DNA of 64,000 bases from a virus: positions 1-64,000 of the IMG/VR virus record IMGVR_UViG_3300032223_001420; one strand, written 5' to 3'. Position numbers and translations under genes: made by a program. This document shows, piece by piece, positions 1-37,029 of this stretch; position 1 is the stretch's first letter; each line of letters opens with the position of its first letter. The notes under the pieces were generated by a model. The model was given only the letters and a program-made list of their open reading frames with translations, made no database searches and had not been told where the DNA came from.

Positions 1-70
1 GTTCGTCTATCGGTTAGGACATCGCCCTTTCACGGCGGTAAGAGGAGTTCGATTCTCCTACGGTGTGCCA
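1..70 (+). tRNA. tRNA-Glu (TTC), 5' end cut by window edge
   Basis: The sequence covers the D arm, the anticodon arm with loop CTTTCAC (anticodon TTC), the T arm and an encoded CCA at 68-70. The 3' acceptor strand CGGTGTG implies a 5' strand CACACCG, of which only the last G lies in the window. It is the first of five tRNAs in tandem. Confidence 0.93.
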
Positions 71-120
71 GTTTTTTATAGGAGACCTGTCATGGATAGT
101 GACAAGAGTGGTAAGATGAA

Positions 121-196
121 GGGAGTATGGTCAAACGGTTAAGACAGCGGACTTTTAATCCGTCAGGTCAGGGTTCGAATCCCTGTGCTCCCACCA
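121..196 (+). tRNA. tRNA-Lys (TTT)
   Basis: Acceptor strands GGGAGTA and TGCTCCC pair with one G-U. The anticodon loop CTTTTAA gives anticodon TTT. The T loop is TTCGAAT and CCA is encoded at 194-196. The next base begins the long helix of the structured RNA at 197. Confidence 0.95.
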
Positions 197-399
197 ATAT
201 CATTAATTGTGTTATTATGGAAAATTCCAGTGATCGCTGGATAGTGCTTCCCGAAATGACTTGTTGTCCGGATTATTCAAGTCTATAGGGTGTGACTGAC
301 GAAAAACCTATGACGATAGGAACAATAAGAGCAGTCCTATTAAATGCAAACCCTAGGCGGTGAATCCTAGGTATAACATGATAACACAATTAATGGTAT
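197..399 (+). ncRNA. Unassigned structured RNA between tRNA-Lys and tRNA-Gln
   Basis: The arms 197-219 and 377-399 form a 23-bp helix (21 Watson-Crick pairs and two G-U) that closes a 157-nt interior. Inside are nested local helices: TCCAG 226-230 with CTGGA 237-241; GACTTG 258-263 with CAAGTC 278-283; GACTG 294-298 with CAGTC 332-336, enclosing CCTA 307-310 with TAGG 317-320; and CCTAGG 352-357 with CCTAGG 366-371. No ORF explains it. The helix starts at the base after the tRNA-Lys CCA and ends 4 nt before tRNA-Gln, so tRNA processing would release it. T4 has two stable RNAs of unknown function (C and D) in its tRNA cluster; homology to those is not shown. Confidence 0.6.
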
Positions 400-403
400 C
401 AGT

Positions 404-479
404 TGGAGATTCGCCAAGTTGGTAAGGCATCGGATTTTGATTCCGACATGCACAGGTTCGAGTCCTGTATCTCCTACCA
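404..479 (+). tRNA. tRNA-Gln (TTG)
   Basis: The anticodon arm has loop TTTTGAT (anticodon TTG), the D arm resembles bacterial tRNA-Gln, the T loop is TTCGAGT and CCA is encoded at 477-479. Acceptor strands TGGAGAT and ATCTCCT leave a U1-U72 mismatch. GlnRS substrates normally have a weak first pair, so the tRNA may still function. Confidence 0.92.
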
Positions 480-518
480 AGTTTAAGTTTACAGTGTACT
501 AGTTTTAAGTTTACAATG

Positions 519-592
519 CTCGGTGTGATGTAATGGCAGCATAGCGGTCTCCAAAACCGTTCGTTGCGGTTCGAGTCCGTACACCGAGGCCA
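519..592 (+). tRNA. tRNA-Trp (CCA)
   Basis: Acceptor strands CTCGGTG and CACCGAG pair perfectly. The anticodon loop CTCCAAA gives CCA. The T arm contains TTCGAGT and the 3' CCA is encoded at 590-592. Confidence 0.93.
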
Positions 593-598
593 AACAAC

Positions 599-685
599 GG
601 AGAGTTGGCAGAGTGGTAATGCACCGGATTGCTAATCCGCCGTTTCGAAAGAGGCGCACAGGTTCGAGTCCTGTACTCTCCGCCA
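599..685 (+). tRNA. tRNA-Ser (GCT)
   Basis: This class II tRNA has a long variable arm (roughly 640-657). Acceptor strands GGAGAGT and ACTCTCC pair, the anticodon loop TTGCTAA gives GCT, and CCA is encoded at 683-685. It is the last member of the cluster, 20 nt before a sigma-70 promoter. Confidence 0.94.
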
Positions 686-2186: not shown

Positions 2187-2471
2187 ATGAAATTAAAAAT
2201 ATCAGGTATACTATATGATGTTGTGTACCGTTCAACTGAAGAGATGAATGGTCTTATCGGTTCAGCCGATTTCAACAAACAATTAATCTCAATCAATAAA
2301 GACCACACCGCACAAACTCAAGAAATTGCATTTGTGCATGAAGTATTGCACATACTTAGTGATGCTTATGGTGTTGGTATGTCAGAAGAACAAATCAAAA
2401 TTATGACTCATGCAATAGTTGCATTGTATAAGGATAACGAACTACATGAAAACTTGGACATTAGAAGTTAA
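2187..2471 (+). CDS. Small HEXXH putative metalloprotease, 94 aa
   Basis: The sequence 'FVHEVLHIL' at residues 49-57 is a zinc metallopeptidase HEXXH motif (H51, E52, H55). The protein is very short for an ImmA/IrrE-type peptidase, so it may be a minimal zincin-like domain. No third ligand can be assigned with certainty. The ATG lies 4 nt after the tRNA-Gly CCA and has no Shine-Dalgarno; an in-frame reading through the tRNA (from 2130) is unlikely. The 3' end overlaps the next gene by 26 nt. Confidence 0.6.
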   Translation: MKLKISGILYDVVYRSTEEMNGLIGSADFNKQLISINKDHTAQTQEIAFVHEVLHILSDAYGVGMSEEQIKIMTHAIVALYKDNELHENLDIRS

Positions 2472-2637
2472 AAAAATGATGGTGACCGATGACTATTACA
2501 TTGAGTTTCCAGAAGAGGTGTTAGAAGAAGCAGGATGGAAGCCAGGTGATACTTTGAAGTGGACTGACAAGGGTGATGGTTCGTGGTCACTATCAAAGAT
2601 TAATGAAAATACTGAGTCGAATGAAGAACAGAAATGA
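2446..2637 (+). CDS. AbrB/MazE-like small protein
   Basis: 63 residues. 'YIEFPEEVLEEAGWKPGD' followed by 'LKWTDKGDGSWSL' has the swapped-hairpin pattern of SpoVT/AbrB and MazE domains, which usually bind DNA as dimers. No toxin partner is visible next to it, so it is probably a regulator or structural homologue rather than an antitoxin. The ATG at 2446 starts the conserved 'MKTWTLEV' end and lies inside the preceding gene. Confidence 0.55.
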   Translation: MKTWTLEVKKMMVTDDYYIEFPEEVLEEAGWKPGDTLKWTDKGDGSWSLSKINENTESNEEQK

Positions 2638-2673: not shown

Positions 2674-2814
2674 ATGAAAACATATAAGTGTGAAGTATGC
2701 GACCATATCCATGATGAGTCGGAACACGGTAAGTTGGAAGATTTACCAAAGTTTGCAAACTGCCCAAGTTGCGGTAGTGACGCAAGAGAAGTTTATAAAG
2801 AAGTAGAATTCTAA
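2674..2814 (+). CDS. Rubredoxin-like protein, 46 aa
   Basis: The N-terminal 'YKCEVCDHIHDE' (Cys6 and Cys9) and C-terminal 'LPKFANCPSCGSD' carry the two CxxC pairs of rubredoxin, which binds one iron in a Cys4 site for electron transfer. The spacing 'EDLP...CPSCG' matches rubredoxin. It is shorter than usual (about 52-55 aa) and has Phe-Ala instead of the usual Trp before the second pair, so a Cys4 zinc ribbon is possible. GAGGAG precedes the ATG. It lies 14 nt upstream of the PqqA-like gene and probably shares its message. Confidence 0.72.
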   Translation: MKTYKCEVCDHIHDESEHGKLEDLPKFANCPSCGSDAREVYKEVEF

Positions 2815-2828
2815 TCAAGGAGATTCAA

Positions 2829-2903
2829 ATGGCTTGGACTACACCTTCAGCAACAGATATGCGTTTTGGTTTTGAAATTACAATGTATATTGCAAATCGC
2901 TAA
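2829..2903 (+). CDS. pqqA: PqqA-like PQQ precursor peptide, 24 aa
   Basis: PqqA is the ribosomal precursor of pyrroloquinoline quinone; PqqE cross-links its Glu and Tyr. The C-terminal half 'RFGFEITMYIANR' carries the E-x3-Y pair (Glu16, Tyr20) at the family spacing and keeps the R-x-G-x-E-x-T-x-Y-I-x-NR pattern of bacterial PqqA. The upstream Trp, Pro and Asp are also at PqqA positions with a one-residue offset. Length fits the family (22-29 aa). AAGGAGAT lies 7 nt before the ATG. No other pqq gene is in the window, so host PqqBCDE would be needed. A bidirectional terminator follows directly. Confidence 0.85.
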   Translation: MAWTTPSATDMRFGFEITMYIANR

Positions 2904-2905
2904 AG

Positions 2906-2930
2906 AAAGGACCTTAGGGTCCTTTTTTAT
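2906..2930. terminator. Bidirectional Rho-independent terminator
   Basis: The stem AAAGGACC (2906-2913) and GGTCCTTT (2918-2925) has a TTAG loop, with T residues on the plus side and A residues upstream that act for the minus strand. It ends the PqqA-like message. The stop codon of the convergent minus gene lies in the loop. Confidence 0.85.
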
Positions 2931-3099
2931 TACCTCTAGCTGGTTTAATCCTAATCAACGAATCATCTTTTACACTGCTGATGGCATGTTCTATTATACG
3001 AGCTAAGGCTTCATTTGAAGTAGCAAGAATCAAGCTGTCGGTTTTATTTGTACGAACGTAGTAAAACGTTTCGTTATCGATTATTTCTTTGTATATCAT
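2914..3099 (-). CDS. Hypothetical protein, 61 aa
   Basis: No family recognised. Short alpha/beta protein with a basic C-terminus. Its start overlaps the end of the upstream minus gene by 26 nt, so the two are co-transcribed, and its stop lies in the bidirectional terminator. Confidence 0.55.
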   Translation of the reverse strand: MIYKEIIDNETFYYVRTNKTDSLILATSNEALARIIEHAISSVKDDSLIRIKPARGNKKGP

Positions 3100-3865
3100 A
3101 AATTTCGCAATCGATCCATTTTAGATTATTATATTTGTCATACAACCAACTTCCTTTAGGTATTAAACATTTACCCAACTCTGGTGATTGTTCTATACGT
3201 ACCTGAACGACTGCCCAAACTAACCAAATGAAATAGATGATGAACATTGTTGCTAATCCATATTTCCATGCTTCACATTTGATTTTGTTAATTCTTTTCT
3301 TCTTCAGTATTGCCGCTTCTCTTTCCTTTTTCATTTTGATGCCAATAGCAATACTTTGTTCTTCTTGGATTCTTTCCATCATCTTTTCAACTTTGGTATA
3401 TAAATCACCCAATTCAGGAGGACTCTGATACACCATAATCTCACGAAGTTCAGCCTGCATGGCTTGAAGTTTGGTTTGCATTAGAACACGCTGCAAAGCA
3501 CGTTTACCTACACTATGCGGTCCTTCATAAACTTCGTATGCATGTCTTTCTTCTTCTTGAAAGATAGCCATACAAGTTGCCATGTTTTCGAAGTAAGCAC
3601 CTAAGTTCTCACCGATGACCGTATAGATATCATCGGGCTGTTTTTTGCTTAGTTCTATTACACGATTTTTTTCTTGGATGTACTGATTATGTTCAGCAAC
3701 GGTAGGAGGGCGATCTTTATGTCGGTCGTGGAACTGCGATTCAAGGTCTGTAAGAACACCCTTGACATCACTGGCGGCAGATGCAATTTCTTTGTAGAGT
3801 TTGCATCCTTGTTTAACTGCGGCGACTGCACCATTTGCTAAGGCAAAGAGGGTTAGTGGATCCAT
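3074..3865 (-). CDS. Conserved membrane-anchored phage protein, 263 aa
   Basis: Function unknown. The start 'MDPLTLFALANGAVAAVKQG' is typical of a protein found in many T4-like marine phages. The ATG at 3865 is chosen over an upstream TTG (3880) because AAAGGG lies just before it. A long charged helical region (about 25-200, Lys/Glu/Gln-rich) precedes one transmembrane segment at about 207-229 (ATMFIIYFIWLVWAVV), and a short domain with two cysteines follows. The layout suggests an inner-membrane protein with a cytoplasmic coiled region. Confidence 0.65.
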   Translation of the reverse strand: MDPLTLFALANGAVAAVKQGCKLYKEIASAASDVKGVLTDLESQFHDRHKDRPPTVAEHNQYIQEKNRVIELSKKQPDDIYTVIGENLGAYFENMATCMAIFQEEERHAYEVYEGPHSVGKRALQRVLMQTKLQAMQAELREIMVYQSPPELGDLYTKVEKMMERIQEEQSIAIGIKMKKEREAAILKKKRINKIKCEAWKYGLATMFIIYFIWLVWAVVQVRIEQSPELGKCLIPKGSWLYDKYNNLKWIDCEIYDIQRNNR

Positions 3866-3923
3866 TTGTCCCTTTAACAACCTTTCGTATATGAAACATA
3901 AAAAAGTTCAAAAAAGACAATGC

Positions 3924-16810: not shown

Positions 16811-16932
16811 GTGATGATAAAAAAGAACCTAAAACACCACTCGATCATTTCGAACGCTGGTTTGATATAGCACTTCGATTTGGTTGGTGTTTGTTCATTT
16901 ATGTGGTTGTCACTGGCAATTACATAAGATAG
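16807..16932 (+). CDS. Tiny membrane protein, 41 aa
   Basis: A charged N-terminus (MSDDKKEPKTPLDHFER) is followed by one hydrophobic segment (about 24-39, RFGWCLFIYVVVTG). The ATGA overlap with the previous stop supports translation by coupling. Function unknown. The tmRNA begins directly downstream. Confidence 0.55.
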   Translation: MSDDKKEPKTPLDHFERWFDIALRFGWCLFIYVVVTGNYIR

Positions 16933-16933
16933 A

Positions 16934-17205
16934 ATTGTTGTAATCCCTTCAAAGCGAAGGCATGTTGGACGAGGGTTCGATTCCCTCCATCTCCACCAAA
17001 AGCATATTGTGTAGTATGTTTTTGATGGGGATGACCAGGTTTCGACAGCGTGAGATAGTGGAGACGGCAACACGGTAGGCGATGACCGTAAATCAAGCAA
17101 AACTACAAATGCAAATGACGCATTTTATGGTGAGGATCGCCTAGCAGCGTAACTCACTTGGGGTTTAGGGAGTGTCCTTATTAACCAATCACTCCCACCA
17201 AATTT
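16934..17205 (+). ncRNA. ssrA: Circularly permuted (two-piece) tmRNA
   Basis: tmRNA frees stalled ribosomes and tags the protein. The acceptor piece comes first: hairpin CCTTC/GAAGG (16946-16960), P2 strand CATGTTG (16961-16967), T arm GAGGG-TTCGATT-CCCTC (16971-16987), acceptor strand CATCTCC (16988-16994), then A and encoded CCA (16996-16998). A spacer hairpin of about 28 nt follows. The coding piece starts GGGGATG (17027-17033), which pairs with the acceptor strand (one G-U), then GGTTTCGAC, and CAGCGTG (17046-17052), which pairs with the P2 strand. The tag frame 17111-17152 reads ANDAFYGEDRLAA-stop. Outer boundaries are inferred. Two-piece tmRNAs are known in alphaproteobacteria, some cyanobacteria and some betaproteobacteria. 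Confidence 0.87.
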
Positions 17206-17213
17206 TATACATT

Positions 17214-34228: not shown

Positions 34229-34533
34229 TGCCAGCAGTTTCTAGAAAAGATGGAACCGATACAATAACAACAGGTCATGGTTGTGATGCTACAACTGTGA
34301 CCGATCAAGGTTCATCTACAGTTTTTGTCAATAGTATTGGTGCAGTTCGTGCTGGAGATTTATGTAAAGTGCATTTAATTCTTGTGGGTGATTCTTGTGT
34401 ACCACATACGGTGCCATTAACTTCATATTCTGGTAGTGTTTTTGTAAATGGAAAAGGTGTTGGAAGAAAAGGTGATTCTTATTCCGGAGAAGTTTTAACA
34501 TCCGGTTCAGGTAATGTTTTCGCTGGAGGCTGA
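34228..34533 (+). CDS. PAAR-repeat spike tip protein
   Basis: 101 residues. 'MPAVSRKDGTDTITTGHGCDA' and the repeated 'VFVNSIGAVRAGDLC', then 'VFVNGKGVGRKGDSY' are PAAR-type repeats that cap the central spike (T4 gp5.4). His and Cys residues (GHGC, CVPH) could hold the metal at the tip. It follows the spike gene with a one-base overlap. Confidence 0.88.
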   Translation: MPAVSRKDGTDTITTGHGCDATTVTDQGSSTVFVNSIGAVRAGDLCKVHLILVGDSCVPHTVPLTSYSGSVFVNGKGVGRKGDSYSGEVLTSGSGNVFAGG

Positions 34534-34544
34534 ATAAATAAACG

Positions 34545-34967
34545 ATGTCAACAAAAATAACATCAACCGACCCATCTATAGCTTCCGAGAGAAGTTATAT
34601 AGATTTAGATTTGAACTTTACAGCACATCCTGTAAAGAAAGATATTAATGTGCATTATAATGAAAAAGCGGTCATCAATTCTGTAAAGAATTTAGTATCG
34701 ACAAATTTTTATGAACGACCATTTCAGCCAGAATTGGGTTCGAATATTCGTCGTTTGCTTTTTGAACCGATTGATTCTATTGTTGCCGCTTCTTTGGAAA
34801 GACAACTTCAAGAAACGATTGAAAACTTTGAGCCGAGAGTTTCAATAGATTCGATTACTGCATATGCTGCACCGGATGAAAATGGATATAGTGTTAGTTT
34901 AACTTTTTTTATTCAGAACTCACCTAATCCAATAACAATTAACTTCTTTTTAGAGCGTATAAGATAA
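34545..34967 (+). CDS. 25: gp25-like baseplate wedge protein
   Basis: 140 residues, length like T4 gp25 (132). 'NEKAVINSVKNLVSTNFYERPFQPELGSNIRRLLFEP' (about 42-77) is the gp25/VasS signature. gp25 links wedge and sheath. AATAAATA lies just before the start (34533-34540) but is too close to act as a standard late promoter for this ATG. It is followed after 1 nt by gp6. Confidence 0.92.
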   Translation: MSTKITSTDPSIASERSYIDLDLNFTAHPVKKDINVHYNEKAVINSVKNLVSTNFYERPFQPELGSNIRRLLFEPIDSIVAASLERQLQETIENFEPRVSIDSITAYAAPDENGYSVSLTFFIQNSPNPITINFFLERIR

Positions 34968-34968
34968 A

Positions 34969-37029
34969 ATGACAGAACGTCTAAGAGTAACCGAACTTGA
35001 TTTTGATACAATCAAGCAGAATTTAAAAACATATTTACAAGCACAAAACAAGTTTACCGACTATGATTTCGATGGTTCTGGTCTGTCTATTTTGCTTGAT
35101 ATTCTGGCATACAATACTCACTATAATGCGTATTACCTGAATATGGTTGCAAACGAATCATTTTTAGATACTGCTCTTTTACGTGATTCGGTTATTTCTC
35201 ATGCTAAAGTTTTGGGCTACGTTCCATATTCGACTAAAGCGCCGATTGCTAATATTAACTTTACTGTACAAACCACTTCAAATTCAGCAGCAACAATTAC
35301 TGTCCCTAAAGGATTTCGTTTTTTATCAAATGAGATTGATGGTGTAAGTTATGGTTTTGTCACACTACAAGAGAATAAAGTTACCAAAGCAAACACCGAC
35401 TTTGTTTTTGAAAACCTAGAATTGTATGAGGGACAGTTAGTAACATATTCATATACGTATGATACGACATCCAATCCCAAACAAATATTTACAATTCCTG
35501 ATGAAAACGTTGACACAACAACGATTACGGTAGTCGTTCAGCCTTCTACATCTTGTACCGCTTCTGAAGTATATACATTCGCTCCAGATGCATCGGAAAC
35601 GAATACAAACTCTTCTGTGTTTTATCTACAAGAAAATAAGAGCAAAAAATACGACATTTATTTTGGTAACGATGTTATCGGTAAAAGTTTAACTAATGGT
35701 TCGATTGTTTCAATTTCATACTTGATTACAAATGGAAGTGCTGCAAATAAAGCAGCTAATTTTGTAGCCGCAGGTGGGGGATTAACTGATTCGTTAGGTA
35801 ATAATCAAACAAACTTTATAATCGATTTGGTCAACGAAGCATCTGGTGGTGCTGAACGAGAGTCGGTCGATGAAATTAAATTTTCTGCTCCTTTACAATT
35901 TACCACGCAGAATCGATTAGTGACAATCAAAGACTATGAGTCTTTCATTATTAAAAATTATCCTTCGGTAGATTCGGTATCGGTATGGGGTGGTGAAGAT
36001 GAAGCTCCTCCTGTTTTTGGAACAGTATTTCTTTCTCTAAAACCTCGTCAAAACTATTATCTGTCAAACGTTGAAAAGCAAAGAATTATCGATGAGATTA
36101 TAAAACCAAAAGCAGTTGTTGCTGTTCAAACGATCATACGTGATCCAGAATATTTGTATTTGTTAATTTCACCAAACGTAACGTATGATCCCAAGAAAAC
36201 AATTTTAACGCCAGAACAATTGAAGACATCAATTAGAACGGCTGTTGTAAACTATAAAAATACTTACTTGGATAAGTTTAATTCGAGATTTATTCTGTCT
36301 AAACTTCAACAAGATATTGCTTCAGTTGATTTGAACTCAATCATTGGTTCAAAAGTGGTGGTTCGTCTGCAAAAAAGATTTGAGCCAACACTAGGTATTG
36401 GTCAATCATATACTCTCTATTTTAATGCTGCGTTATATCGTGGTACGATTTCTGATAAATTGACATCTACATATTTTAAAACATATGATAGTTTGGGTAT
36501 TGAAAGAGAAGTTCAGTTTGAAGAAATTCCACAATCATACTCAGGTATTTCATCTATTTCGATTATCAATCCTGGTTCAGGATATACTTCTGCACCGAAT
36601 GTAACTATTTCTGGTGACGGAACTGGAGCGACTGCTGTGGCTACCGTGGTCAATGGAGTAATCTCAAACATAACTGTTGTTAATAGAGGCATCGATTATA
36701 CACGTGCAGTTATTACTATTGATGGTGGTAACGGTTATGGTGCATCAGCCGCAGCCGAAGTTGATGCTAAGATCGGTACAATACGAACTGTATATTATGA
36801 TACTCTATCACAAAAACAAGTTGTTGATGAATCCGCTGGTACAATCAATTATGATACCGGTGAAGTTGTGATTAACAATATTCTCATTAACTCAGTCACT
36901 TCGGCCGATGGTTATATTAGACTTTCAATTGAGGCTGATAAAGGTATAATAGATACAGTAAAAAATACAATTATAACTATTGATGAACAAGACCCAATTT
37001 CGATTAGCACAACACTAGAAACTGTATAA
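34969..37029 (+). CDS. 6: gp6-like baseplate wedge protein
   Basis: 686 residues (T4 gp6: 660). The N-terminus 'LDILAYNTHYNAYYLNMVANESFLDTALLRDSV' region (about 42-74) and 'LGYVPYSTKAP' are hallmarks of gp6/gpJ-type wedge proteins. A glycine-rich beta module at about 525-600 (NPGSGYTSAPNVTISGDGTG) interrupts the C-terminal part and is shared with three other baseplate proteins here. It abuts the gp7-like gene. Confidence 0.92.
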   Translation: MTERLRVTELDFDTIKQNLKTYLQAQNKFTDYDFDGSGLSILLDILAYNTHYNAYYLNMVANESFLDTALLRDSVISHAKVLGYVPYSTKAPIANINFTVQTTSNSAATITVPKGFRFLSNEIDGVSYGFVTLQENKVTKANTDFVFENLELYEGQLVTYSYTYDTTSNPKQIFTIPDENVDTTTITVVVQPSTSCTASEVYTFAPDASETNTNSSVFYLQENKSKKYDIYFGNDVIGKSLTNGSIVSISYLITNGSAANKAANFVAAGGGLTDSLGNNQTNFIIDLVNEASGGAERESVDEIKFSAPLQFTTQNRLVTIKDYESFIIKNYPSVDSVSVWGGEDEAPPVFGTVFLSLKPRQNYYLSNVEKQRIIDEIIKPKAVVAVQTIIRDPEYLYLLISPNVTYDPKKTILTPEQLKTSIRTAVVNYKNTYLDKFNSRFILSKLQQDIASVDLNSIIGSKVVVRLQKRFEPTLGIGQSYTLYFNAALYRGTISDKLTSTYFKTYDSLGIEREVQFEEIPQSYSGISSISIINPGSGYTSAPNVTISGDGTGATAVATVVNGVISNITVVNRGIDYTRAVITIDGGNGYGASAAAEVDAKIGTIRTVYYDTLSQKQVVDESAGTINYDTGEVVINNILINSVTSADGYIRLSIEADKGIIDTVKNTIITIDEQDPISISTTLETV

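What the first reader, a model, noticed from the sequence alone, without database searches (positions are those of the whole stretch)
2674..2930. Phage-encoded PqqA-like peptide next to a rubredoxin-like gene
A 24-codon gene with a strong ribosome-binding site encodes a peptide with the PqqA E-x3-Y pair (Glu16, Tyr20) and the flanking R-x-G-x-E-x-T-x-Y-I-x-NR pattern; about half the residues are identical to well-known bacterial PqqA. PqqA is the substrate from which PqqE/PqqD make the PQQ cofactor of methanol and other dehydrogenases. A phage carrying only the precursor could raise PQQ output in infected cells using host enzymes, or divert them. The neighbouring rubredoxin-like gene hints at a redox cassette. 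The gene is too short for ordinary ORF calling, so it may be overlooked in related phages.
Basis: partly seen in the sequence, partly recalled or inferred. Interest (0 to 1): 0.92.

Follow-up and report, generated by a model that had tools for sequence, protein, structure and literature searches.

The report
Phage gene for PQQ precursor peptide
A phage that probably infects a betaproteobacterium carries a 24-residue gene for PqqA, the peptide that host enzymes convert into the redox cofactor PQQ; phages of methanol-eating bacteria carry such genes very often, yet they are usually left unannotated.

Summary
ORF 2829-2903 (MAWTTPSATDMRFGFEITMYIANR) is a genuine PqqA: PF08042 41.4 bits (cut-off 21.1) and TIGR02107 equivalog 40.5 bits (cut-off 20). 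It has an AAGGAG ribosome-binding site and a terminator whose stem shows a compensatory change in the closest relative. The window lies in a T4-like virus with no PqqE, PqqD or PQQ dehydrogenase in its 86.5 kb record. The case is not isolated. In a scan that left Glu16 and Tyr20 free, 120/120 kept both. None of 89 pqqA-bearing viral records has PqqE, while 5/5 candidate hosts do. Nine cultured Methylophilales phages carry pqqA, unannotated or hidden under another call. Likely mechanism: phages supply the one consumable of PQQ synthesis and host PqqBCDE do the chemistry. The peptide and a beta-type tmRNA suggest a Burkholderiales-like host. Viral PqqA was reported before (Lake Baikal, 2020), so the kind is known; the prevalence is the news. 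The rubredoxin-like neighbour is absent from the closest relative, though related large phages place pqqA beside rubrerythrin far more often than chance.

The parts
2829..2903 (+). pqqA: 24-aa PQQ precursor peptide MAWTTPSATDMRFGFEITMYIANR with Glu16 and Tyr20
   Evidence: PF08042 41.4 bits and TIGR02107 40.5 bits, both above curated cut-offs; syntenic orthologue in the 69.6 kb relative
2817..2822 (+). Shine-Dalgarno AAGGAG, 6 nt before the ATG
   Evidence: sequence; anti-SD pairing -8.5 kcal/mol against a median of -5.1 for large ORFs
2903..2929 (+). intrinsic terminator hairpin directly after pqqA
   Evidence: dG -14.9, z -4.2; compensatory A-T to G-C pair change in the relative
2674..2814 (+). 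46-aa rubredoxin-like / zinc-ribbon protein (two CxxC), probably co-transcribed with pqqA but not a conserved partner
   Evidence: sub-threshold Rubredoxin and FmdB hits; absent from the closest relative; homologues near pqqA in 7 of 249 viral loci
2449..2637 (+). AbrB/MazE-like small protein, upstream neighbour conserved in the relative
   Evidence: PF04014 just below cut-off; phrog_661; synteny
3074..3880 (-). 268-aa ORF of unknown function, convergent downstream neighbour conserved in the relative
   Evidence: tblastx synteny; no PHROG match

Best explanation
The gene encodes a functional PqqA precursor peptide. During infection the phage makes PqqA in quantity from a strong ribosome-binding site. 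Host PqqD and PqqE would bind it and crosslink Glu16 to Tyr20, and host PqqB, PqqC and a protease would finish PQQ. A phage that shuts down host expression therefore needs to bring only this short gene to keep PQQ-dependent alcohol or methanol dehydrogenases charged and the host's energy supply running. Shown here: family identity, substrate-residue invariance, purifying selection, translation and termination signals, absence of the other pqq genes from the phages, and presence of PqqE in bacteria with the closest PqqA. Inferred: expression, processing by host enzymes, and the benefit to the phage.
For: PF08042 and TIGR02107 above cut-offs. A pattern scan leaving Glu, Thr and Tyr free returned 120 of 120 with all three. 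249 viral copies encode 107 peptides on 204 distinct DNA sequences; pN/pS is 0.11-0.13 within the two main types (biased down because the search patterns fix some residues). Strong SD in nearly all: 245 of 249, median -7.4 against -5.1 kcal/mol. Terminator-like hairpin downstream in 128 of 246 against 11 expected. PqqE over cut-off in 0 of 89 viral records and 5 of 5 candidate hosts; PqqD in 0 of 48; pqqB beside pqqA in 1 of 399 viral loci against about 52 of 149 bacterial loci. pqqA in nine cultured Methylophilales phages from several unrelated groups, and in 5 of 6 near-complete relatives of phage Venkman chosen by terminase alone. Methylophilaceae hosts have 3-12 pqqA copies but generally one pqqBCDE set (PMC4109929), so PqqA dosage seems to matter to them too.
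Against: No expression, modification or PQQ measurement exists for any phage copy. The host of this phage is inferred only: PqqA type (best bacterial match 92%) and a beta-type tmRNA (RF01850). Whether new PQQ is needed within one infection cycle is unknown. The virus record is incomplete (86.5 kb, T4-like), so pqq genes elsewhere in the genome cannot be excluded for this phage alone.
Confidence: 0.78

Rival explanations
1. Decoy: the phage peptide occupies PqqD/PqqE without being converted, lowering host PQQ or diverting the radical-SAM enzyme.
For: Precursor-only carriage would also suit a decoy.
Against: Glu and Tyr, the residues consumed in the reaction, never vary in an unconstrained scan; three viral peptide types, 44 of 249 loci, are identical to bacterial PqqA. 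A decoy should tolerate or favour loss of the reactive residues.
Confidence: 0.07
2. Redox-stress role: pqqA belongs with rubrerythrin and rubredoxin-like genes in a phage cassette against peroxide, PQQ being wanted as a redox-active compound or for a detoxifying oxidase rather than for methanol oxidation.
For: In large phages of the same PqqA type a rubrerythrin lies within 2 kb of pqqA in 16 of the 24 records that have one (1.0 expected, P about 1e-17); rubrerythrin, rubredoxin-like and pqqA stand in that order in L063, L080 and L364.
Against: No rubrerythrin in this record; the rubredoxin-like gene is missing from the closest relative and lies near pqqA in only about 3% of loci. None of the loci with a rubrerythrin nearby has the Methylophilaceae-type PqqA. 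Co-location may only mark a shared island of host-derived genes.
Confidence: 0.1
3. Passenger: a recently captured bacterial orphan pqqA without function in the phage, or bacterial DNA misfiled as viral.
For: Bacteria do carry scattered orphan pqqA copies. One small 'viral' contig (L533) and an 'Acinetobacter phage' record are really bacterial pqq operons.
Against: Purifying selection, conserved synteny and compensatory terminator change, presence in sequenced isolates and in 100-367 kb phage contigs; median identity to the nearest sampled bacterial gene is only 83%.
Confidence: 0.05

Closest known systems
PqqA, PQQ precursor peptide (PF08042, TIGR02107)
   Same: Length, W-x2-P, R-x-G-F-E-x-T-x-Y core, Glu-x3-Tyr pair, C-terminal NR; 92% identical to a Burkholderiales PqqA
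   Different: Encoded by a phage, far from any pqqBCDE genes
Viral PqqA of Lake Baikal population VP_266 (PMC7678222)
   Same: PqqA in a T4-like virus of betaproteobacteria
   Different: VP_266 also encodes methanol dehydrogenase; that report covers one population. Here no dehydrogenase is found and PqqA is shown to be widespread; only 1 of 49 pqqA records tested has a PQQ_2 protein
Orphan pqqA copies of Methylophilaceae (3-12 per genome, PMC4109929)
   Same: Stand-alone extra pqqA genes served by one pqqBCDE set
   Different: Chromosomal, not phage-borne
Cyanophage psbA (D1 protein), an auxiliary metabolic gene that replaces the fast-consumed part of a host system (own knowledge)
   Different: D1 is a protein subunit lost to damage; PqqA is a peptide substrate turned into a cofactor

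Membership tests
PqqA (PF08042 / TIGR02107) | Score above curated profile cut-off | tested here: met
   41.4 against 21.1 bits and 40.5 against 20 bits
PqqA (PF08042 / TIGR02107) | Glu-x3-Tyr pair that becomes PQQ | tested here: met
   Glu16, Tyr20; invariant in 120 of 120 viral peptides found without constraining them
PqqA (PF08042 / TIGR02107) | Short peptide of about 20-30 residues with its own start and stop | tested here: met
   24 aa, SD and terminator; 23-25 aa in 249 viral copies
PqqA (PF08042 / TIGR02107) | Crosslinked by PqqE with PqqD | not testable with these tools
   needs enzyme assay; the host enzyme gene is present in 5 of 5 candidate host genomes
Phage auxiliary metabolic gene | Lies in a virus genome and has a cellular homologue | tested here: met
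   T4-like tail, baseplate, PhoH and ssDNA-binding genes in the window; bacterial homologues; cultured phages
Phage auxiliary metabolic gene | Alters host metabolism during infection | not tested
   no expression or PQQ data
Rubredoxin (PF00301), ORF 2674-2814 | Score above curated cut-off | tested here: not met
   21.6 against 23 bits; NCBIfam rubredoxin 24.4 against 90
Complete PQQ biosynthesis locus | pqqBCDE alongside pqqA | tested here: not met
   PqqE, PqqD absent from the 86.5 kb record

The most novel reading that the evidence does not exclude
Stand-alone pqqA is a near-standard gene of phages infecting methylotrophic and other PQQ-making Burkholderiales-type bacteria, acquired many times. 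PQQ supply is thus a common bottleneck of infection, relieved by giving the host only the consumable ribosomal peptide; this would be one of the smallest metabolic genes used by viruses.
Probability: 0.55. Interest if true: 0.75.

Novelty: new member of a known kind. Interest (0 to 1): 0.62.

Why it matters
If phages of abundant aquatic methylotrophs feed their hosts' PQQ synthesis, infection would directly steer methanol and alcohol oxidation, and hence carbon flux, in lakes and coastal seas. The gene is below the size that gene callers and phage family libraries handle: PHROGs has no match to it, and three of the isolate papers that I searched for PQQ say nothing of it while the fourth names PQQ only as a medium ingredient. 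The question can be tested now with cultured phage-host pairs (P19250A, Venkman, Melnitz, MEP301, MEP401/402).

Tried and rejected
Idea that viral pqqA are fragments of bacterial operons: rejected. Idea that the rubredoxin-like gene is a fixed partner: rejected for this phage and for most others. The first guess of a Methylophilaceae host was dropped for a Burkholderiales-type host, because the peptide matches Comamonadaceae, Limnobacter and Thauera forms better than the Methylophilaceae form. Acinetobacter phage MD-2021a was excluded as bacterial DNA. Phages MEP431-434 and HIM624-A could not be located in the collection, so 'all cultured methylophages' is not claimed. The paper that links PqqA to defence systems (PMC11118758) concerns bacterial PqqA and was not used.

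Full report
What is there. ORF 2829-2903 (+) encodes MAWTTPSATDMRFGFEITMYIANR. It passes Pfam PF08042 (41.4 bits, cut-off 21.1) and the NCBIfam equivalog TIGR02107 (40.5 bits, cut-off 20) over their full length. AAGGAG precedes the ATG, and a terminator hairpin (dG -14.9, z -4.2) starts at the stop codon. The window is part of an 86,490-base virus record with T4-type genes: ssDNA-binding protein, PhoH, tail tube and baseplate wedge.

Conservation in the nearest relative. A 69.6 kb virus record with 72% identical baseplate protein has pqqA at the same place between the AbrB/MazE-like gene and the 268-aa ORF. The two genes match at 64 of 75 bases; the differences are three amino acid changes and six silent codon changes. 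The terminator stem changes on both sides, from GGACC/GGTCC to GGGCC/GGCCC, so the hairpin is kept. The rubredoxin-like ORF is absent there, so pqqA does not depend on it.

Extent. Every hit of the first two is a 23-25 aa PqqA; across all three, 249 of 253 viral loci yield a complete PqqA ORF. In the second scan Glu, Thr and Tyr are present in 120 of 120. Two exact 21-mers that make up 6 and 4 of the first 120 hits occur in 103 and 54 contigs of the whole collection, which gives about 120 x 157 / 10 = 1,900 contigs, uncertain by about a factor of two. Among annotated phages, pqqA occurs in nine Methylophilales phage genomes (Melnitz x4, P19250A, Venkman, MEP301, MEP401, MEP402) and one podovirus from Manatee Spring. 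It is unannotated in the five short-genome isolates, and in Melnitz-2 an antisense ORF was called instead. Of six Venkman-like contigs of 20 kb or more chosen by terminase alone, five carry it. The isolate papers do not mention it.

Selection and expression signals. 249 viral copies encode 107 distinct peptides on 204 distinct DNA sequences. pN/pS is 0.11 and 0.13 within the two main types; this is biased down because the search patterns fix some residues, but the Glu, Thr and Tyr codons do vary silently (GAA/GAG, ACN, TAT/TAC). SD pairing is stronger than for large ORFs in the same contigs (-7.4 against -5.1 kcal/mol). A terminator-like hairpin follows in 52% against 5% for random stretches.

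Precursor only. None of 89 pqqA-carrying viral records reaches the PqqE cut-off, while all five bacterial genomes with the closest PqqA do, four of them on the same contig within about 3 kb. PqqD is absent from 48 of 48 records. Only 1 of 49 has a PQQ dehydrogenase domain. Of 399 viral loci only one small contig has pqqB next to pqqA, and that one looks bacterial.

Host. The peptide is of the DMRFGFEITMYIANR type found in Burkholderiales, Thauera and Limnobacter rather than the EMRFGFEVTMYVMNK type of Methylophilaceae. The best bacterial match is 92%. The window also has a permuted tmRNA matching the betaproteobacterial Rfam model (RF01850, 154.9 bits). The host is therefore probably a PQQ-making betaproteobacterium; genus unknown.

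Mechanism. PqqA is consumed one peptide per PQQ, whereas PqqB-E are catalytic (established biochemistry, own knowledge; the Glu-Tyr crosslinking by PqqE with PqqD is Barr et al. 2016, cited in PMC9851590). Methylophilaceae keep 3-12 pqqA copies with generally one pqqBCDE set (PMC4109929), and adding pqqA alone or the whole cluster helped a PQQ-dependent production strain (review PMC8102297). A phage that shuts down host expression would lose the supply of this peptide first. Supplying it keeps PQQ enzymes charged. This last step is inference.

Rubrerythrin link. In the same PqqA type, 24 of 46 large records carry a single-domain rubrerythrin. In 16 of these 24 it lies within 2 kb of pqqA where 1.0 would be expected (P about 1e-17). 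Three loci have the order rubrerythrin, rubredoxin-like, pqqA. The records may share ancestry, so the P value overstates independence.

Known or new. PqqA in a methylotroph virus was reported for one Lake Baikal population together with methanol dehydrogenase (PMC7678222), and pqqA appears in a 2026 list of viral genes (PMC13188868). The gene is therefore a member of a known kind. What appears to be new is its extent, its independence from the other PQQ genes and its systematic absence from annotation.

Noticed in passing
window 16889-17207: Phage-encoded permuted tmRNA of the betaproteobacterial type (RF01850 154.9 bits, RF04321 154 bits); ARAGORN reads the tag as ANDAFYGEDRLAA.
   Followed up: partly
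window 1-685 and 2108-2182: Six tRNA genes (Lys, Gln, Trp, Ser, Gly and one cut off at the window start) around the pqqA region.
   Followed up: no
L063, L080, L364, L300, L314, L315, L330, L358, L368 and others: Single-domain rubrerythrin next to pqqA in large phage contigs, in some with a separate rubredoxin-like gene in between, as if a two-domain rubrerythrin had been split.
   Followed up: partly
G021 (record of L051), 34406-35671: A viral record with both pqqA and a 628-aa ORF matching PQQ_2, probably a viral methanol dehydrogenase as in the Baikal report.
   Followed up: no
L274 2967-3062 (Melnitz-2, MZ577096): Annotated minus-strand 'hypothetical protein' is antisense to pqqA and probably not a gene.
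   Followed up: yes
L275 (CAKLQF020000010.1) and L533: Records filed as viral that hold bacterial pqqA with pqqB and further pqq genes: misclassified DNA.
   Followed up: yes
G476, G479, G480, G482: Viral records of 46-214 kb with clusters of several weak radical-SAM hits (3-5 each) besides pqqA, far below the PqqE cut-off; what they do is unknown.
   Followed up: no
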